Source: Methylococcaceae bacterium TMED69 (GTDB lineage Bacteria > Pseudomonadota > Gammaproteobacteria > Ga0077536). Taken from it: a stretch of 53,094 nt of DNA. Position 1 is the first letter of the stretch. Every line of letters begins with the position of its first letter. Where the stretch lies: NCBI GenBank assembly GCA_002170535.1, contig NHDW01000008.1, positions 180,549 to 233,642 on the forward strand, given 5' to 3'. The notes under the pieces are model-generated. The model searched no databases. It had not been told where the DNA came from and saw only the letters and a list, made by a program, of their open reading frames with translations. A program made the translations under genes and the position numbers. Positions 14,846-25,815 of the stretch are shown piece by piece.

Positions 14846-15670
14846 CTAGGATTGGCGCCTATGAAAAATATTATCGATAAAGATCATATGGGGCACTGTT
14901 AAAGATGCCAGTAAGATAAAAACCGTTCTTGTTAAAGAGTCATTAAATTCAAAATCTTTATAAAAGCTGTAATAAAGTACTAAGCTAGCAACGATTATCA
15001 TGGTAGCGATAAAAAAAGGAATAGTTTTATATATAATGTCGTGAAACTCGTTGCTTGATAGGCAAATGGCTTTAATTGAATTCAGATGGCGTATCGTGTG
15101 AATACCACAAAAATAAAAGGTAAAAAAAATTATTGGGTCTAATAGAAAGCAGCTTATAGTGAGAAGTATAATTTCGTATAGAGGAAATCTTTTTAAAGAG
15201 CACTGAAAAGCTACCAAGCTAAACAGTAGTAAACTAATACACCAAAGCAGAAAAGCGGCCAAAAAAAATGAATAAAAAAAGTATTCAGATCCTCCTAGTA
15301 TGGAGAATATAAAGAATGTTTTTTCCGGATGAAATATAGGGGTTATTATAGTTACCAAACCTCCATGGGAAAAACTTATTATTAATTTTTCAAAATTATT
15401 TAGATTGAAATCTGGGAAATTGCTCCTTAAGTCGCTGAGCCCAAAATGCACAAGACTTATAATTAGAAATATCGATAGTCCGATGTTTGGAAAATACGCC
15501 CAAAAAATCCAAAAGCCAATACCGGCAAAAACGTATAACAAGAGCTGAAGGTTTTGGTTGATCTGGATACTATTTACTTTATTTAGTAAGGGGCCATCGA
15601 TTGCTCCATGGGGTAATCCAATTAATATAATCAGGGCAAGACAAATCGTATCAATCGATGTCAGTTCCAT
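14846..15670 (-). CDS. blh: Blh/Brp beta-carotene 15,15'-dioxygenase
   Basis: A 274-residue integral membrane protein with about eight hydrophobic helices. It carries the Blh signature histidines in GLPHGAIDGP, LVHFGLSDL, SHGG and GIHTIRHLNS. These residues are thought to hold the iron that splits beta-carotene into two retinals. Last gene of the proteorhodopsin operon, with its start overlapping crtY by 20 bp. Retinal produced here is the chromophore of the pump encoded at the front of the operon. Confidence 0.95.
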   Translation of the reverse strand: MELTSIDTICLALIILIGLPHGAIDGPLLNKVNSIQINQNLQLLLYVFAGIGFWIFWAYFPNIGLSIFLIISLVHFGLSDLRSNFPDFNLNNFEKLIISFSHGGLVTIITPIFHPEKTFFIFSILGGSEYFFYSFFLAAFLLWCISLLLFSLVAFQCSLKRFPLYEIILLTISCFLLDPIIFFTFYFCGIHTIRHLNSIKAICLSSNEFHDIIYKTIPFFIATMIIVASLVLYYSFYKDFEFNDSLTRTVFILLASLTVPHMIFIDNIFHRRQS

Positions 15671-16748
15671 GGTATAGCTTAGCCTGTATTGTTTGAAATC
15701 CCGCTTTCAAGAAAGGTATTTTTGGTAAGGCGCAAATTATTTTTAATAGGATGTTAAGACGTGTTTTGCCCGACATGAAACTAGCGAACTCGTCCCCAGT
15801 CAGTCGTTTGCTAATCTTTATAAAGAATTCTGGAGCTTTGTGGGGTTGTCGCTTCAATGCCATTAAAAAAATTGAATCAAGTATAGTCTCAAGCCTTGAA
15901 AAAGCGAAAGGTATCTGTCTTTGTCTGGTAATTGTTTGGCCTGCTGAAATTTGTGCAGCTATCTGCTGTGTCTGGTGCTGAATTGAATTAAATGCATATC
16001 CAGAGCTTTTCCTAAGGCAATTACCATTACTGCCAATACCAAGATAGTTACTGTCATGCTTAACCACGTGCCCCATAGGGATTTTTCCGTATTCTTCTGC
16101 AATTATTCTGTATTCGATGCATTTTAATCTTTCGGTTAGATATTTTTTGATTGCTTCTTTGTAATATTTTGATGGGCAAAGAAACTCACTAATTCGAGTC
16201 GACTCTATGAGTGCACTTGTGGATGAAAAGGGTAAAATATATATGAAATGAGGTCCTTGCCGTTGATCGCAACGAAAATCCATTAAAGTTACGCTTTTTG
16301 GATTAAATAACGGTTTTTTTACCTCAATGGTTTGCCCAACGAATTCCTGAGTCAGTCCGCCGGAAGATGCCCTTGGGTTCCTACTGTCGAATACTAAAGG
16401 TCCAGGTTCGGGAATATTTGGGCTGATAACTAATTTTTCGAATCCGCATAAAGCCAGCCACTCGCGACTATTTATTGTGCAGTATGGAGAGTTTTTTGTT
16501 TTGTGTGTGACTACCGATTCCTCACTTATAATTTCCCATTCATACCATTTTTTTTTAATAGACTGTTCAACAAAGAGATTTACTTGATCACCCCAAAAAC
16601 TCCAATAATTTGGGGTTGCGAAGGCATTTGACTTACGACCATAAAAGTTTATTTTATATGTATTGGTTTTACTATCAATTGATAGATATTTTGCTAGTGA
16701 TAGCCCGGCACAACCAGCTCCAATAATGTGGATTTCCTTTTTTACCAT
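15651..16748 (-). CDS. crtY: Lycopene beta-cyclase
   Basis: A 365-residue CrtY-type flavoprotein. It has the N-terminal dinucleotide fold IHIIGAGCAGLSLAKYL, TPNYWSFWGDQ, and KPLFNPKSVTLMDFRCDQRQGPHFIYILPFS, plus KIPMGHVV and GIGSNGNCLRKSSGYAF. It turns lycopene into beta-carotene by cyclising both ends. It overlaps crtB by 7 bp upstream and blh by 20 bp downstream, so the three are translated as a tight unit. Confidence 0.94.
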   Translation of the reverse strand: MVKKEIHIIGAGCAGLSLAKYLSIDSKTNTYKINFYGRKSNAFATPNYWSFWGDQVNLFVEQSIKKKWYEWEIISEESVVTHKTKNSPYCTINSREWLALCGFEKLVISPNIPEPGPLVFDSRNPRASSGGLTQEFVGQTIEVKKPLFNPKSVTLMDFRCDQRQGPHFIYILPFSSTSALIESTRISEFLCPSKYYKEAIKKYLTERLKCIEYRIIAEEYGKIPMGHVVKHDSNYLGIGSNGNCLRKSSGYAFNSIQHQTQQIAAQISAGQTITRQRQIPFAFSRLETILDSIFLMALKRQPHKAPEFFIKISKRLTGDEFASFMSGKTRLNILLKIICALPKIPFLKAGFQTIQAKLYHGTDID

Positions 16749-17656
16749 GAGCGCTTAAAATCTTTTAAGTGATGGTGGAGTATAGCTGAATGTTTTGGAT
16801 TCGTCTGTCGAACATCCATAAGATATTTAGTTGAAAAGATAGTTGCTAAGATTTTATCGAAAAGAGTGGTATAGGCTCTACTTTTCCCCCAGTCAAAATG
16901 TTTTGACCTAATTTTTTTGCCTATATCCTGATATATATTCGATGCAACTGCAATTCCAAACCTGCTGCGCAAAGGTAAATAAGATAACCCCTGGCGGCCG
17001 CTCTCGTAATATTGTTGAGCTAAATCAAGAAGTCTATGAATAGCAATTCTAATTTTTCGATGGCTATCGCTGTAAGGATGCTGACTGGATTCTCGTATCT
17101 CTCGGGTGGTCATAGAATCTAGCCAAGTGCCAGGTAAGTATCGTCTGTCTAAATTGGAATCCTCGAATACATCTCTCGCTATGTTAGTCATTTGCATCCC
17201 AACGCCAAGGTCTACCGCAAACTTTAACGCTTCCTTTCCCTTACATCCCAATATTGGGCACATGAGTAACCCTACGGTTCCCGCAACTCGATAACAATAT
17301 TCAACTAATTCTTTTTCGTCCTTAATTTGTACTGTTTCTTGATCAGATATTAATCCATCCAGCAAATGCGACGAAACTTCTTTGTTGAGTCCTAGGCTGT
17401 GGTATGCGCTTTGTAGTCTTTTAAAATTATTGGAGCCTTTCTCAGGACGCGTCTCATTGATTATTCTTTCTTTAAAATCCCTTAATAAACGTGAGTTGTT
17501 CTTATCCTTCTCGTCAGCAAGATCGTCAAGTGTTCGACAAAAAAAATAAAGCAAGGAAATTGAATCTCTTTGCTTTCTGGGGAAAAGTTTTGATGCCCAA
17601 TGAAAACTTTTACTGTGTTCGCCCAAAACTTTTTCATGTGCGTTATCTATATTCAT
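16742..17656 (-). CDS. crtB: Phytoene synthase
   Basis: A 304-residue all-helical prenyl synthase. The first acid motif is RTLDDLADE (residues 41-49) and the second is QMTNIARDVFEDSNLDRRYLP, both diagnostic of squalene/phytoene synthases. It joins two geranylgeranyl diphosphates to make phytoene. Typical length. It lies 8 bp after crtI and overlaps crtY, in the standard PR-operon order. Confidence 0.95.
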   Translation of the reverse strand: MNIDNAHEKVLGEHSKSFHWASKLFPRKQRDSISLLYFFCRTLDDLADEKDKNNSRLLRDFKERIINETRPEKGSNNFKRLQSAYHSLGLNKEVSSHLLDGLISDQETVQIKDEKELVEYCYRVAGTVGLLMCPILGCKGKEALKFAVDLGVGMQMTNIARDVFEDSNLDRRYLPGTWLDSMTTREIRESSQHPYSDSHRKIRIAIHRLLDLAQQYYESGRQGLSYLPLRSRFGIAVASNIYQDIGKKIRSKHFDWGKSRAYTTLFDKILATIFSTKYLMDVRQTNPKHSAILHHHLKDFKRSW

Positions 17657-17664
17657 TATATTAA

Positions 17665-19179
17665 TTAATGAATATTTTTATTTATTATTAATTCTTCAAT
17701 AACTTTTGCTGAACATAGCACACCTGGCATACCCGCCCCAGGGTGTGTTCCAGCACCAACTAAAAATAGGTTTTTATATGAGCTATCATGATTGTGGTAT
17801 CTAAACCAGGCCGATTGAGTGAGAGAGGGCGCAATAGAAAATCCCGCTCCATGTGTGGATCTATAGTCTGATCGGAAATCTTCAGGAGTCATAAAAAAAT
17901 CATCAACATAATGCTTAGATAAATCTGGCATAATAGTTTTATCTAAGGCCTCAATTATTCTCTGAGAGAGTTTAGGGCCTTCAACTTTCCAATTTATAGA
18001 TGCAAGCAGGTTGGGTACTGGGCAAAGCACATAAAAGCTATCGTTGCCTTTTGGGGCGAAAGAGGTATCTGTAGCTGTTGGTCTATGCAAATAAAGCGAA
18101 AAGTCGTCAGAAAGGGTTTTATTTTTAAAAATATCTGTTAGTAGAGACTTAAATCTTTTTCCCATCCATATAGTATGGTGTGCGATATTTTCATACCTTT
18201 TTTTTGTCCCGAAGAAAAGCACGAACAATCCCATTGAGTAAGTGGTTAAGCTATCAGGAAGAATTTTATTAAATGGTGATCTTTTATATGGTAAAACTTC
18301 GTCAAATAGAGTGGGCGGATCAATGTTACTAATGAATAAATCAGCCTCATATTTTGTGCCCGTTGAACTAATTGCATACTTTACTATTTTGTCGCTGACC
18401 TCCAGTCTTGCGATATCAGTCTCAAGCACTACATCGATTTGATTTTGACACATTAGTTCATATAAAGATCTTATTAAATTACCTGTTCCTCCCATGCAAA
18501 AATGAACCCCCCATTTTCTTTCTAAGAAATGAATCAATGAATAGATTGATGTAGTACTAAAGGGGTTCCCCCCGACCAGAAGAGGGTGTATTGAAAATGC
18601 TTTTCTCAGAAGTGGATGCTTTAGATAGCTATTTACAAATTGGCTTACCGTTCTATATCCTCCTAGTCTTAAAATATTTGGTGTCTGAAGTATCATGGTG
18701 GATAGGTTATTAAAAGGTTTTGATGATAATTCTGTAAATCCAACGTCAAAAATTTTCTCGGAAGCAGCTAAAAGTCGCAGATAATTTTTGGTATCATCGA
18801 AATTAAATTTCCTAATTTCTTCTAGTGTATCCGGGACTTCCGCTCTATAGTCAAAAGTTTCGCCAGTATGGAAGTAATAGCTGTACCAAGGATCTAAAGC
18901 CCTAAAATCGACATGTTCTTCTCGTGTAGTTCCTAGAAGGGTGAATAATTCATCGAATAAAAAGGGTGCTGTAAGAACGGTTGGGCCTGCATCATGAATG
19001 TAACCATTTTTCTTAAACACCTGGGCTCTTCCGCCTAGGGCACTTAGCCTCTCAATTAATGTTGTTTTATAACCTAGGGCATTTACTCTAATTGCTGCAG
19101 CAATTCCTCCAATGCCCCCACCTATAACAATAGCGTTCCTTTTTGACTTATATTTGTTCGACTTAGAATATTGCAACAT
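17665..19179 (-). CDS. crtI: Phytoene desaturase
   Basis: A 504-residue CrtI-type flavoprotein. It shows the N-terminal FAD motif VIGGGIGGIAAAIRVNALGY, the GGRAQVFKKNGYIHDAGPTV region, GGNPFSTTSIYSLIHFLERKWGVHFCMGGTG and the C-terminal GAGTHPGAGMPGVLCSAK block. It takes phytoene to lycopene through successive desaturations. It is 41 bp downstream of crtE on the minus strand. Confidence 0.96.
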   Translation of the reverse strand: MLQYSKSNKYKSKRNAIVIGGGIGGIAAAIRVNALGYKTTLIERLSALGGRAQVFKKNGYIHDAGPTVLTAPFLFDELFTLLGTTREEHVDFRALDPWYSYYFHTGETFDYRAEVPDTLEEIRKFNFDDTKNYLRLLAASEKIFDVGFTELSSKPFNNLSTMILQTPNILRLGGYRTVSQFVNSYLKHPLLRKAFSIHPLLVGGNPFSTTSIYSLIHFLERKWGVHFCMGGTGNLIRSLYELMCQNQIDVVLETDIARLEVSDKIVKYAISSTGTKYEADLFISNIDPPTLFDEVLPYKRSPFNKILPDSLTTYSMGLFVLFFGTKKRYENIAHHTIWMGKRFKSLLTDIFKNKTLSDDFSLYLHRPTATDTSFAPKGNDSFYVLCPVPNLLASINWKVEGPKLSQRIIEALDKTIMPDLSKHYVDDFFMTPEDFRSDYRSTHGAGFSIAPSLTQSAWFRYHNHDSSYKNLFLVGAGTHPGAGMPGVLCSAKVIEELIINKNIH

Positions 19180-19220
19180 GAATTTTTCTATTTTTTTTAA
19201 ACTGACACCCAGATGTACAG

Positions 19221-20228
19221 TTAAAATTTAATTTGGTTGGCAATTTTAATTTGAGTTTTTATAGAGTTGGTTATATCTTTTAGTTTTTTTGGCAGTGCTT
19301 TTGATTGATCTTCTATTCTGCGATCTATGCTTTCTAAAGCTTTTTTTGTTTCTAGAAGGGCAGAAGAGTGATTAATTTGATTCCTCCAATATTCGACATC
19401 ACAATCAATGAATGAATTAAGCCATTCGTCAAAAGCACCTTTGGTCGATGTGTTAATCGTATCTCTGAATTTAATTATTACTGCGTTAGGAGCTCTTCGG
19501 TGTATGTCAGAAAAAGGAGACAAGGCCCCATCTTCCCCTAAAAAATTTAATATGTCATTTGATATTTGATAATATTTACTTGTCTCTAAAAGCACATTAT
19601 TTAATGGGCCGCAATGACACAAATTGCCAGACAGTTGGAGCATTCCCGAGATTGGAACCGATAATAAAGGTGCTGTCTTGTTCCCAGCAATAGCCAAGTA
19701 TTCACTCCAAGCTGGGTATTTTAGATACGATAAATCCTTTACTTGACCGTTACTAGTAATTTGAAGGGCCTTTGCAAGGCTAGTGATTAAAGAGGTTTCT
19801 TTTGATTCAGATGTGATGATGCTAGCTAATTCAAACGACTTCCCTATTAACCAGTCTCCAAAAGTAAGTGCGACCTCTTCGCCGAACTTTGCGCTGACGT
19901 TCCGGTTACCTCTTCTAATCGAGTCGTGATCACATATATCGTCATGCACTAGAGAAGCATTATGCATTAATTCAACGCTTAGACCCCATAACAAGGACCA
20001 TTCTTTCGAAACTCCAAAAGAGTCTCCGGTGATTAAAGCTAATTTTCCTCTTATGAACTTACCGCGAGCCTTGAAATGATATCTGCTTATCTTGCCAAGG
20101 TGAGTTTCCTTTGGTGGAAGCAGAAGCTCTAGTTCGTTATGTAATTTATTCTCAAGCGACTCATTACCTTTTTTGATAGGCTCAAAAATCCCATCATGTG
20201 ACAGGTCGCTTGCAGGTAAGCTAAGCAT
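19221..20228 (-). CDS. crtE: Geranylgeranyl diphosphate synthase-like protein
   Basis: A 335-residue trans-prenyl transferase. The first aspartate-rich motif is intact (LVHDDICDHDSIRRG), as are FGEEVALTFGDWLIG and GQVKDLSY. The second motif is altered: where DDxxD is usual, the sequence reads ISNDILNFLGED, and the following G-K-x-T region reads SDIHRRAPNAVIIKFRD. This variant may be normal for PR-operon CrtE proteins; it does not rule out activity. It should make C20 diphosphate for crtB. AAGAAGG precedes the ATG. A stem-loop lies just upstream, between this gene and proteorhodopsin. Confidence 0.88.
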   Translation of the reverse strand: MLSLPASDLSHDGIFEPIKKGNESLENKLHNELELLLPPKETHLGKISRYHFKARGKFIRGKLALITGDSFGVSKEWSLLWGLSVELMHNASLVHDDICDHDSIRRGNRNVSAKFGEEVALTFGDWLIGKSFELASIITSESKETSLITSLAKALQITSNGQVKDLSYLKYPAWSEYLAIAGNKTAPLLSVPISGMLQLSGNLCHCGPLNNVLLETSKYYQISNDILNFLGEDGALSPFSDIHRRAPNAVIIKFRDTINTSTKGAFDEWLNSFIDCDVEYWRNQINHSSALLETKKALESIDRRIEDQSKALPKKLKDITNSIKTQIKIANQIKF

Positions 20229-20270
20229 TATTCGCTACCTTCTTGTAAAAGGTTGATTTTTAATTGGGCG

Positions 20271-20300
20271 GGGTATAATTCATAAAAATAAATTATACCC
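20271..20300 (-). promoter_or_regulatory. Stem-loop between proteorhodopsin and crtE
   Basis: GGGTATAATT (20271-20280) and its exact complement AATTATACCC (20291-20300) surround a 10-nt loop. The transcript of the operon would form a 10-bp hairpin here. No run of U follows, so a simple intrinsic terminator is unlikely. It may protect the upstream proteorhodopsin mRNA from decay, or reduce read-through to the carotenoid genes. Confidence 0.65.
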
Positions 20301-20329
20301 ACACACCAAACTTACTGGTTTTTAATCGC

Positions 20330-21082
20330 TTAAGCGTTTGACTCTTTGGTTGCGCAAGCCCAAATCGCTAAGCAAAATGCGATTTTGTTAATGACATCAG
20401 CAACATTATAGATAATATTAAGAGTGTTAGCATCAGCACCACCGGCCAGATAGCCCATAAAATATCCGAGAGGATATATAGCCCAGCCAATAGTAACGAT
20501 TAACCTCATTATATTGAAAGAAGCTTTTACAGACTCTGGTGCGTTCTCTGATGAGACTTTCCCAGCTTCACCCATGAATATTTCATAAAGAATGAATAGC
20601 CAACCCAGCATCCCTATTACAAATCCAGTTGTCACATTGATGAAGCCAGCTTCACCTAAGTAACCACCCATTAGCATTACAACTGTACCTACGAGTAGTC
20701 TCCAAAAAACTCCCAAAGAAATCGCCGTACAAGCTGCAAGTATCAGGTAGAACTCGATCATTTGTAATGGAACTGTAATCAACCAGTCAACATATCTGAA
20801 GACAGTTGGTGATTCACCGGTCGCAACCCAAACATCTCTCATGTAGAAATAGTGAACCGCAGCAACTAATGTTACAAGTGCGCCGACCACCATTGATGTT
20901 CTCCATTTGGATGAAACGTTCAAGGTTTCCATTAAAAAGAAGACCGTTGCAGCTACCATACACATTGAGATAACCCAAAATGAAATTCCGACGGAATCCG
21001 TTGGATCAAGTTGGGCCGCAAAGCCACTAACTGGAGCTAACAATAAGATGGGGGTTAGAAACCCCAATATTCTAGAACCCAT
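20330..21082 (-). CDS. Proteorhodopsin, blue-absorbing type
   Basis: A 250-residue seven-helix light-driven proton pump with an N-terminal signal sequence. Key residues, with eBAC31A08 numbering in brackets, are the Schiff-base lysine K233 (K231) in NVADVINKIAF, the counterion D99 (D97), the proton donor E110 (E108), T103 (T101), and H77 (H75) in AAVHYFYMRDVW. Q107 (Q105) in VPLQMIEF marks the blue-tuned spectral form common in clear open water. The ATG at 21082 has GGGAGG 7 nt upstream; the longer frame from 21151 would run through a promoter-like element. First gene of the retinal operon. Confidence 0.97.
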   Translation of the reverse strand: MGSRILGFLTPILLLAPVSGFAAQLDPTDSVGISFWVISMCMVAATVFFLMETLNVSSKWRTSMVVGALVTLVAAVHYFYMRDVWVATGESPTVFRYVDWLITVPLQMIEFYLILAACTAISLGVFWRLLVGTVVMLMGGYLGEAGFINVTTGFVIGMLGWLFILYEIFMGEAGKVSSENAPESVKASFNIMRLIVTIGWAIYPLGYFMGYLAGGADANTLNIIYNVADVINKIAFCLAIWACATKESNA

Positions 21083-21105
21083 AAAAAAACCTCCCAAGTT
21101 TAGTT

Positions 21106-21135
21106 TTGATATGATGCTCCGAAGCTTTTTGTCAA
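21106..21135 (-). promoter_or_regulatory. Candidate promoter of the proteorhodopsin operon
   Basis: On the minus strand a perfect TTGACA (21130-21135) is followed by 18 bp and TATCAA (21106-21111), giving a leader of roughly 20 nt before the ATG at 21082. The -10 is only a partial match. An alternative farther upstream is TTGGTC, 15 bp, TATACT near 21180-21206, with a better -10 and a poor -35. Confidence 0.4.
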
Positions 21136-21158
21136 AAGATTCTCGCATCACTTTTTAC

Positions 21159-23719: not shown

Positions 23720-25477
23720 ATGAAAACAAAACTTTTTACGTTAAAGGAACATCCAGAAAACAATCAAATATATGAGCCTCATTGTCTCGAAGATTTGAAA
23801 ACAAGCTTAAGCATTCACGGGCAGATGGAGCCCATAGCAGTGACTAAGTCGGGGGTAATCATATCTGGTCATCGAAGATATAACGCGATGAATTCTTTGG
23901 GTTGGGTGGAATGTGATGTGAGAATCGTCGAACCAGAAAACGAATTGATTGCTTTGATAGAACATAATCGTTATCGCCAAAAAAGTTCATCAGACATTTT
24001 GAAAGAGGCCAGAATTCTTGAAAAGGAATTGCGAAAAAAGATTGGACGGGGAAGGTATGCGTCAAAAAATAGAGAGGGACGTCATCAGGGCGAGAGAATT
24101 ACAATGGTAGTGCAGCTTTCAAAAAAACTAGGGGTAGGAACTTCTAGATTAAAACAACTCTTTTCTATTTCTAATTATAAACCAGAATTAATAGAGGAGA
24201 TTGATAAAGGAGGATTGTCTGTTTCGGCCGCTTACGCGCAAATTAAAGAAGAATTTTTCAATAATGATAGTAATAAAATTCCAAAGTACACGCAGTATAA
24301 AGAACTCGGCAAATGTTTGAAAGCAACTAATTTATCTCTAGATGATATAGAAGAAGTAATAAAAAGAACTCACCCTTATTGTTTAAATAGGACTAATATA
24401 TCCGCTGAAAAAAGAAGGCGACTTACAGATCAACTTTCTTTTCTATCGGAATTATCTAATGATGAGCTAGTAGCTATTCGGAAAAAAGATGAAGTCGAGA
24501 ATACCTATATAGACCCTAAATACCTTAAAAAATTAAAAGAAGTAACACCTAGTTTATTGGAGTTAAAAAATTTTTTTTCGGAAAGTATTGCAATCGATAA
24601 GGTTTGTCTCGACTTAGTTGATAAAAATTATTTCAATCAGAAATTTTGGAGCACTGTGAGAACTCATATTCATAGCATAGATAACAACAAGCAAATCGGG
24701 AGAAGGCTATCAGCATTCGTCGGTTTCCACAATAGTAATGGGTATCGTCTGTTAGGAATCATTTCCTACGGCAGTCCAAGTTATGCCATCAAAGCAAGAG
24801 ATTCACATGTTGGATGGACTAAAGAATTAAGAGAAGAGAAAAGGGACCACCTAGTAAACTTATCCGTATGTTGTCCCACCCAACCTTTTGGTTTCAGTTT
24901 TCTGGGCGGCAAATTTTTGGCTTGTTTTGCAGATCGATTAATCCCATTTTGGGAAAACAAATATCAACAACGGGTCGTCGCAGTGACGTGTACTAGTTTG
25001 GAAGAGGGGTTGTGTCAATATTCAGGGCTTAAAAATTGGAAGAGGCTCGGTAGTACTTCTGGGAGAATGCTATTGAAGCCACTTCGGCAAGAGTGGCAAT
25101 TTTGGCGTAATTGGTACAGAAAAAACTTCAGGGAATTGTATGACAAAACAATAAAAGATAGCTCACCAACTCAATCTACGCTTCGTGAGATTTTTAATAT
25201 ATTAGATATTCCTTCGAAAGAATTTATTCATAATCACAGGCGAGGAATTCATTTTCATCATCTTTATAAGAATTATATCAATTTTCTAAATGGCCATATT
25301 GATGAGCAACATTTGGTCCCAGAAACTTTTGATTGGCAAGGGGCATGGTTTGAAAAAATGAAGTCTCGGGTAGAAAATCAGGCTGATAGGAGTGAGATTA
25401 CGACAGATCATCTAAATTTCAATGAAAGAAACGAGGAAGTGATGTTGGCTTGGTTAGATGCTAAAGGTGTACTTTGA
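23720..25477 (+). CDS. ParB-domain protein fused to a DruA/Mom-like domain
   Basis: A 585-residue cytosolic protein. Residues ~1-100 form a ParB/Srx N-terminal domain (QMEPIAVTKSGVIISGHRRY and the downstream EHNRYRQ), which in relatives binds DNA or hydrolyses CTP. Residues ~105-180 look like the ParB helix-turn-helix (LSKKLGVGTSRLKQLFSIS). Residues ~335-460 carry YRLLGIISYGSPSYAIKARD, an R-x-x-H-L-x-x-L segment and YSGLKNWKRLGSTSGR. This resembles DUF4338, the Druantia protein DruA, and related Mom-like acyltransferase folds. The combination suggests DNA modification or phage defence rather than chromosome partition, since no parA is next to it. Two tiny membrane genes follow. Confidence 0.72.
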   Translation: MKTKLFTLKEHPENNQIYEPHCLEDLKTSLSIHGQMEPIAVTKSGVIISGHRRYNAMNSLGWVECDVRIVEPENELIALIEHNRYRQKSSSDILKEARILEKELRKKIGRGRYASKNREGRHQGERITMVVQLSKKLGVGTSRLKQLFSISNYKPELIEEIDKGGLSVSAAYAQIKEEFFNNDSNKIPKYTQYKELGKCLKATNLSLDDIEEVIKRTHPYCLNRTNISAEKRRRLTDQLSFLSELSNDELVAIRKKDEVENTYIDPKYLKKLKEVTPSLLELKNFFSESIAIDKVCLDLVDKNYFNQKFWSTVRTHIHSIDNNKQIGRRLSAFVGFHNSNGYRLLGIISYGSPSYAIKARDSHVGWTKELREEKRDHLVNLSVCCPTQPFGFSFLGGKFLACFADRLIPFWENKYQQRVVAVTCTSLEEGLCQYSGLKNWKRLGSTSGRMLLKPLRQEWQFWRNWYRKNFRELYDKTIKDSSPTQSTLREIFNILDIPSKEFIHNHRRGIHFHHLYKNYINFLNGHIDEQHLVPETFDWQGAWFEKMKSRVENQADRSEITTDHLNFNERNEEVMLAWLDAKGVL

Positions 25478-25623: not shown

Positions 25624-25815
25624 ATGTTTGAGGCTGCGATTTTGATAACTTTTCTTTCGACGTGGATTCTAGCATGGATAATTTTTAGAAAAAAATACAG
25701 ATGGAATCTAGAAATTGAACAAAGCCCTAATTTAAATGGAAAAATTTTTGTATTTTGTGATCCTGTGCCCAATGAAGGTGTCAGGATAAGAATAATAGAT
25801 AAAGAATTTATCTAG
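25624..25815 (+). CDS. Small membrane-anchored protein, 63 aa
   Basis: The ATG at 25624 follows a very strong GAGGAGG ribosome-binding site. It has one N-terminal membrane helix (ILITFLSTWILAWIIF), a basic turn RKKYRW and a soluble strand-rich tail (GKIFVFCDPVP). It lies 13 bp after the previous small gene, so the ParB-fusion gene and these two form one run. Unknown family. Its 3' end overlaps a convergent gene by 8 bp. Confidence 0.65.
   Translation: MFEAAILITFLSTWILAWIIFRKKYRWNLEIEQSPNLNGKIFVFCDPVPNEGVRIRIIDKEFI

What the first reader, a model, noticed from the sequence alone, without database searches (positions are those of the whole stretch)
23720..25477. ParB-like domain fused to a DruA/Mom-like domain without a parA
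The N-terminus is a clear ParB/Srx domain with HTH; the C-terminus (about 335-460) resembles DUF4338/DruA of the Druantia defence system and Mom-type modification enzymes. No parA, partition site or Druantia helicase is nearby. A site-reading ParB clamp joined to a DNA-acting domain could be a new modification or defence module.
Basis: partly seen in the sequence, partly recalled or inferred. Interest (0 to 1): 0.72.

Follow-up and report, generated by a model that had tools for sequence, protein, structure and literature searches.

The report
ParB domain fused to Mom-like enzyme
A marine bacterium carries, at a stable place in its chromosome, one protein that joins a DNA-reading ParB/helix-turn-helix half to a half related to phage enzymes that attach acyl groups to DNA, so it is probably a self-guided DNA-modifying enzyme rather than a partition protein or a Druantia defence gene.

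Summary
The fusion is real. The 585-aa ORF at 23720-25477 has an N-terminal ParB fold plus helix-turn-helix and a C-terminal DruA/DUF4338 domain (Pfam DruA 2e-17; PHROG ParB 2.5e-18). It has syntenic orthologues in both other available genomes of its genus (49% and 44% identity) and dN/dS about 0.16 between two of them. It occurs nowhere else in its order (36 genomes). The C-terminal half has a GNAT fold whose best match among 350,000 PDB chains is phage Mu Mom (probability 1.00, E about 1e-3). It groups with proteins of marine T4-like phages, whose genes lie among replication genes, and not with Druantia DruA. The ParB half's closest phage relative is a ParB-DNA methyltransferase fusion, and two actinophage groups encode ParB next to Mom. 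Most likely it is an orphan, site-directed DNA acyl-type modification enzyme (confidence 0.5). The Mom catalytic serine (S124) is glycine here, so the chemistry need not be momylation. The defence reading has little support: no Druantia helicase was found, there is no adjacent nuclease, and the locus is stable and housekeeping-like. ParB folds fused to acetyltransferases and DNA methylases are already published (PMC12704722), so this is a new variant of a known kind.

The parts
23720..25477 (+). ParB-DruA fusion gene, 585 aa, ATG to TGA
   Evidence: orthologues
23720..24049 (+). ParB/Srx nucleotide-binding fold (residues 1-110)
   Evidence: PHROG ParB 2.5e-18, Pfam ParB_N 3e-4; Noc/Spo0J structures matched by sequence
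23867..23878 (+). P motif (Box II) G50-H-R-R53, the GxxR of the ParB-CTPase fold
   Evidence: alignment with phage, chromosomal and PDB ParBs
23966..23977 (+). N83-R-Y-R86, divergent equivalent of Box III (ENxQR)
   Evidence: alignment
24092..24259 (+). Helix-turn-helix region of the ParB half (residues 125-180)
   Evidence: helices at pLDDT 76-89 in the model; aligned with phage ParB-MTase and ParB
24287..24589 (+). Helical linker (residues 190-290), mostly shared with the N-terminal part of the marine phage DruA-like proteins
   Evidence: tblastn matches to viral proteins begin at residue 227-232; model
24590..25324 (+). DruA/DUF4338 domain with GNAT-like fold (residues 291-535)
   Evidence: Pfam DruA 2.2e-17; models at pLDDT about 85; Foldseek top hit Mom 8bv8
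24797..24802 (+). R360-D361; R invariant in 27/27, D or N at 361
24881..24913 (+). Q388-P-F-G-F-S-F-L-G-G-K398 loop; Q, P, G391, G396, G397, K398 invariant; G397 occupies the position of Mom catalytic S124
24992..25021 (+). T425-S-L ... Y434; L427 stands where Mom has D149; Y434 (Mom Y159) invariant
25624..25815 (+). Co-directional 63-codon membrane ORF with a good ribosome-binding site; conserved next to the fusion in all three genomes, not shown to be functionally linked

Best explanation
An orphan, chromosomal, self-guided DNA-modifying enzyme. Inferred working: the ParB fold plus HTH finds a DNA site and acts as an NTP-gated clamp (its GxxR phosphate motif is kept). It places the fused GNAT/DruA catalytic half on DNA, and that half transfers an acyl-type group from a CoA-like donor to an exocyclic amine of a base near the bound site. 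Shown: the two-domain architecture, its conservation under selection, the GNAT/Mom-like fold, the phage-type DruA branch, and the fact that relatives of each half sit with DNA replication or DNA modification enzymes. Inferred: DNA as substrate, acyl-CoA as donor, NTP gating, site specificity, and the biological purpose (more likely a modification mark or regulation of the cell's own or infecting DNA than killing).
For: Fold: best PDB match of both models is Mu Mom 8bv8 (prob 1.00, E 1e-3 to 2e-3), followed by GNATs and Noc/ParB. Profiles: DUF4338 of the transposon type bridges to Mom (95%, E 2e-8) and to this family (97%, E 4e-11); Druantia DruA aligns over full length (E 1e-32). An independent report calls DUF4338 a GNAT (PMC10853773). 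Guidance: the ParB half's closest phage relative over fold and HTH (E 7e-19) is fused to an N6_N4 DNA methylase; phages Antuna and Wyborn encode ParB directly before a Mom enzyme. Phage relatives of the DruA half lie among clamp-loader, sliding-clamp, gp46/47 and RegA genes. Selection: pN 0.0085 against pS 0.053 between AG-453-E14 and AG-365-F14. Published ParB-fold fusions include acetyltransferases and DNA methylases that bind NTPs (PMC12704722).
Against: The Mom catalytic S124 is G397 and Mom D149 is L427 here, so Mom chemistry is not transferable. Direct profile comparison of this DruA branch with Mom is not significant; the link needs the transposon-type bridge or the fold. Foldseek E-values are marginal (1e-3) although probability is 1.00. 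Box III of the ParB fold is divergent and the ParB half of the model has low confidence. No target site was found near the gene. No DUF4338 protein has a demonstrated activity in the literature I could read.
Confidence: 0.5

Rival explanations
1. The GNAT half modifies a protein (for example a nucleoid or replication protein) that the ParB half brings close to DNA; DNA itself is not modified.
For: Most GNATs act on proteins or small molecules; generic GNATs follow Mom in the Foldseek lists; phage relatives lie beside clamp-loader genes; the published ParB-acetyltransferase fusion has no known substrate.
Against: The top structural hit is a DNA-modifying GNAT, and ParB partners known here are DNA methylases and Mom.
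Confidence: 0.2
2. A DNA-binding regulator or structural factor: the DruA half has lost catalysis and works as a DNA- or NTP-sensing domain.
For: Mom catalytic Ser and Asp are absent; ParB with HTH alone can act as regulator or spreader; DruA has no proven catalysis.
Against: R360, Q388, G396-K398, Y434, R508 and N518 are invariant in 27 of 27 divergent homologues, and the same GGK loop is seen in Druantia DruA, which argues for an active site of its own.
Confidence: 0.16
3. A single-gene or cryptic anti-phage defence protein (Druantia-like sensor or phage-derived decoy).
For: DruA belongs to Druantia type I; phage-type DruA half in a host genome could mimic a phage protein; DUF4338 also occurs in DndF-like defence proteins (L025).
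Against: No DUF1998/MZB helicase in three genomes, no PADLOC partner beside it, fixed chromosomal site between proteorhodopsin/carotenoid and fdh-nrdAB genes, no mobile-element signs.
Confidence: 0.09
4. A second partition or nucleoid-occlusion ParB that happens to carry an extra domain.
For: Clear ParB fold and HTH; Noc and Spo0J are its nearest solved structures.
Against: No ParA beside it, no parS near it; the genus has a separate canonical ParB in two genomes and canonical parS in the window's own genome; closest ParB relatives are methylase fusions.
Confidence: 0.05

Closest known systems
ParB-fold fusions of Kaljevic et al. 2025 (PMC12704722): ParB-CTPase fold joined to acetyltransferases, N6_N4 and SAM methyltransferases
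   Same: Orphan ParB fold without parA, joined to a transferase domain; GxxR motif kept
   Different: The paper's main text does not name DUF4338, DruA or Mom; its acetyltransferase family is not specified in the text, and many phage fusions lie in prophages whereas this one is at a stable chromosomal locus
Mom of phage Mu (PDB 8bv8, PF25680) and ParB-Mom gene pairs of Microbacterium/Arthrobacter phages
   Same: GNAT fold, shared H/Y/N/G pattern around Mom H58, Y159, G168; ParB partner encoded next door in phages
   Different: S124 is Gly and D149 is Leu here; no Pfam Mom match; about 100 extra C-terminal residues; partner fused rather than separate
DruA of Druantia type I (PF14236, DUF4338)
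   Same: Homologous over the full domain (hhalign E 1e-32), same RD and GGK signatures
   Different: Separate clade (98/94 against 97/97); no DruB-E, no helicase; ParB N-terminus instead of the DruA N-terminus
DUF4338 proteins of marine T4-like phages (HTVC008M, Mosig, cyanophages)
   Same: Closest sequence relatives of residues 227-582 (about 26-35% identity), same clade
   Different: All viral ORFs checked are 200-458 aa, mostly 350-450, and lack the ParB half (240 loci)
Phage ParB-N6_N4 methylase fusion (MW202554, UOF78520)
   Same: Closest phage relative of the ParB half including HTH (34.5% over 165 aa)
   Different: Catalytic half is a SAM methylase, not a GNAT

Membership tests
DruA/DUF4338 (PF14236) | Pfam profile match above gathering score | tested here: met
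   63.6 bits against 27, residues 295-525
DruA/DUF4338 (PF14236) | RD motif and GGK loop | tested here: met
   R360-D361 and G396-G-K398, invariant or nearly so
Druantia defence system | DruE-type helicase with DUF1998/MZB and the other Dru genes | tested here: not met
   No MZB match in the three genus genomes (two only 71-72% complete), none beside the gene
Druantia defence system | DruA groups with Druantia DruA | tested here: not met
   Groups with marine viral proteins (97/97), Druantia-type DruA separate (98/94)
Mom (PF25680) | Profile match | tested here: not met
   No PF25680 match at E up to 1; direct hhalign not significant
Mom (PF25680) | Fold of Mom | tested here: met
   8bv8 is top of 350,542 chains, prob 1.00, E 1e-3
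Mom (PF25680) | Catalytic S124 | tested here: not met
   Aligned to G397 through transposon-type DUF4338
GNAT superfamily | Beta-alpha core with conserved glycine-rich acyl-CoA loop before helix 3 | tested here: met
   Strand/helix order in models, GNATs in Foldseek lists, QPFGxxxxGGK loop; CoA binding itself not testable
ParABS partition ParB | parA neighbour and parS site | tested here: not met
   No parA among the annotated neighbours, no parS above chance in the window; separate canonical ParB in G001/G002
ParB-CTPase fold | Box I loop and Box II GxxR | tested here: met
   HGQMEPIAV loop and GHRR 50-53
ParB-CTPase fold | Box III ENxQR | tested here: not met
   HNRYR instead; published as often divergent in orphan ParBs
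ParB-CTPase fold | NTP binding and hydrolysis | not testable with these tools
   Needs DRaCALA or crystallography

The most novel reading that the evidence does not exclude
An NTP-gated ParB clamp that carries its own DNA-base acyltransferase, writing a new kind of base modification at or around specific sites of a marine bacterial chromosome. The enzyme half would be captured from the replication module of marine T4-like phages, which would then carry the same unknown modification.
Probability: 0.3. Interest if true: 0.78.

Novelty: new variant of a known kind. Interest (0 to 1): 0.5.

Why it matters
If true, it gives DUF4338/DruA a testable biochemical activity (DNA acylation), which would bear on Druantia I, on transposon-borne DUF4338 and on hundreds of marine viral contigs that carry the same domain in their replication module. 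It would also give an enzyme whose target choice is built in through a ParB clamp, a ready model for how orphan ParB folds steer DNA-modifying enzymes.

Tried and rejected
Direct search for close relatives in genome and virus collections with the single protein found nothing; alignments were needed. Search for the fusion in viruses: 240 viral loci, all DruA-like ORFs unfused (200-458 aa, mostly 350-450), one contig (L252) with a ParB-like gene several kb away, not counted as evidence. Search for the fusion among 49 DruA loci sampled from class and phylum: none other. Direct profile comparison of phage-type DruA with Mom: not significant. The idea that the fusion replaces a missing chromosomal ParB: the window's genome lacks a canonical ParB in the assembly, but its genus has one and parS sites are present, so incompleteness of the assembly explains it. 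Shared upstream binding site: the promoter regions of two species share an 11-bp and a 13-bp block but no clear inverted repeat in both. Recent horizontal exchange of this gene: low pS against some neighbours, but DUF1330, HpcH and cupredoxin are equally low and the rest is higher, so it is patchy recombination, not specific to this gene.

Full report
What is there. The ORF at 23720-25477 (+) is 585 codons from ATG to TGA; composition shuffles of the same stretch never exceed 226 open codons. Residues 1-180 match ParB profiles (PHROG 2.5e-18 over 8-173; NCBIfam parB_part 6e-8; Pfam ParB_N 3e-4, just below its cut-off) and residues 295-525 match Pfam DruA/DUF4338 at 2.2e-17, well above the cut-off.

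Is it a real gene? The only two other genomes of the genus held here, both uncultured single-cell-style assemblies (AG-453-E14 and AG-365-F14), carry it: full length at 49% identity, and residues 192-584 at 44% where a contig ends. Neighbours are the same in all three: small secreted protein, 63-residue membrane ORF, 81-residue secreted protein, DUF6787, DUF1330, HpcH, cupredoxin, formate dehydrogenase, NuoF, NrdB. Between the two closer species, silent sites differ by 5.3% and replacement sites by 0.85% (ratio about 0.16). Its divergence from the window (44% over residues 190 onwards) resembles that of neighbouring genes (41-83%). So it is a stable, selected chromosomal gene of this genus. 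It is absent from the other 33 genomes of the order, which here consists of one family, and from the wider samples.

The DruA half. Two models (full length and C-terminal 395 residues, pLDDT about 85 over the domain) were compared with all PDB chains. In both, the best match is phage Mu Mom (8bv8; probability 1.00, E 1.2e-3 to 2.3e-3), followed by GNAT acetyltransferases; the full-length model also finds Noc and ParB. Sequence profiles agree through a bridge: transposon-type DUF4338 aligns with Mom (95%, E 2e-8) and with the window's family (97%, E 4e-11); Druantia-type DruA aligns with the window's family over 300 columns (E 1e-32); the direct comparison with Mom is not significant. A published analysis likewise calls DUF4338 a GNAT (PMC10853773). 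Mapping residues through the bridge: Mom S124, whose alanine mutant is described as inactive in the PDB title, corresponds to G397; Mom D149 to L427; Mom H58 to H318 (H in 14 of 27); Mom Y159 to invariant Y434. The family has its own invariant set: K255, G327, G346, R360, Q388, P389, G391, G396, G397, K398, Y434, R508, N518. So the fold is Mom-like but the chemistry need not be that of Mom.

Where the DruA half comes from. In a tree of 40 sequences the three fusion proteins lie inside a clade of marine viral proteins (97/97), apart from the Druantia type (98/94) and the transposon type (100/100). In IMG/VR at least 560 stretches encode such relatives. In 240 viral loci their commonest neighbours are clamp-loader subunits, DNA polymerase processivity factor, SbcC/SbcD-like gp46/47, RegA, late sigma factor, peptide deformylase and MazG. 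None of these viral ORFs carries the ParB half. A viral source for the catalytic half is plausible but not proven, because the deep branches of the clade are unresolved.

The ParB half. It keeps the Box I loop and the Box II GHRR phosphate motif; Box III is replaced by HNRYR. Published work finds Box III often absent or divergent in orphan ParB folds and reports fusions to acetyltransferases, N6_N4 and other methyltransferases, with CTP, ATP or GTP binding; [quoted passage not shown] The closest phage relative over fold and HTH (34.5% over 165 residues, E 7e-19) is fused to an N6_N4 DNA methylase, and several further matches are annotated as DNA methylases. In phages Antuna and Wyborn a ParB gene directly precedes a Mom-family gene with overlapping or abutting ends; six other Mom loci that I opened had no ParB. 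These pairings support the reading that ParB folds guide DNA-modifying enzymes.

It is not the partition ParB. Canonical ParB is separate in two genus genomes, and the window's genome has a perfect parS at G000:C3:141512, while its own canonical ParB is missing from the 90%-complete assembly. There is no parA beside the fusion and no parS above chance in the window.

It is not Druantia. No DUF1998/MZB helicase was found in the three genomes, while the same search rang in 8 of 14 control genomes. PADLOC finds no partner among the neighbours, and the DruA half is of another clade.

How it most likely works. The ParB/HTH half binds a DNA site and, with a nucleotide, holds the protein on DNA. The GNAT/DruA half then transfers a group, probably from a CoA-type donor, to a base nearby. 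The architecture, the conservation, the fold and the company of both halves are shown; substrate, donor, gating and purpose are inferred. Rivals: protein acylation near DNA, a non-catalytic regulator, a defence protein, or a second partition protein. Literature on Druantia that I could search discusses helicases and gives DruA no activity.

Novelty. Each half, and the principle of joining a ParB fold to a transferase, is known. The pairing with the DUF4338 branch of the Mom-related GNATs, fixed in a bacterial chromosome, was not found in the papers I could search. I rate it a new variant of a known kind.

Noticed in passing
L040-L279 (IMG/VR), L005-L010 (Pelagibacter and Synechococcus phages): Marine T4-like phages very commonly carry a DUF4338/DruA-type GNAT gene inside the replication module (between clamp-loader genes, beside sliding clamp, gp46/47, RegA). 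At least 560 matching stretches; function unknown, possibly an undescribed DNA modification.
   Followed up: partly
L281:1969-3118 and L282:1908-3061: Microbacterium phage Antuna and Arthrobacter phage Wyborn encode a 176-177 aa ParB directly before a Mom-family enzyme with overlapping or abutting ends, a separate-gene version of the ParB plus Mom-like pairing.
   Followed up: partly
L018, L016, L020, L037 and others (class sample): Transposon-associated DUF4338 proteins are detectably homologous to Mom (hhalign 95%, E 2e-8) and keep the Mom catalytic Ser position (NLAS), unlike DruA and the phage branch (GGK).
   Followed up: partly
L025, L324, L330: Very long DruA-containing ORFs (1077-1297 aa), one with a following P-loop region, similar in layout to the DndF fusions described in PMC10853773.
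   Followed up: no
L303 and L307 (phage HTVC008M), L159: Some viral genomes hold two DUF4338 genes: HTVC008M has them 13 kb apart, and contig L159 has two in tandem.
   Followed up: no
L038/L039: The two single-cell genomes show patchy silent divergence along the shared 10.8 kb (pS 0.03-0.05 in some genes, 0.18-0.26 in others), a sign of recombination tracts.
   Followed up: partly
14846-21151: Proteorhodopsin next to a carotenoid/retinal gene set (polyprenyl synthetase, desaturase-like, beta-carotene dioxygenase Blh type) upstream of the finding.
   Followed up: partly
G000 (whole assembly): The canonical chromosomal ParB is not found in the 90%-complete assembly although parS sites are present on contig C3; most likely an assembly gap.
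   Followed up: partly
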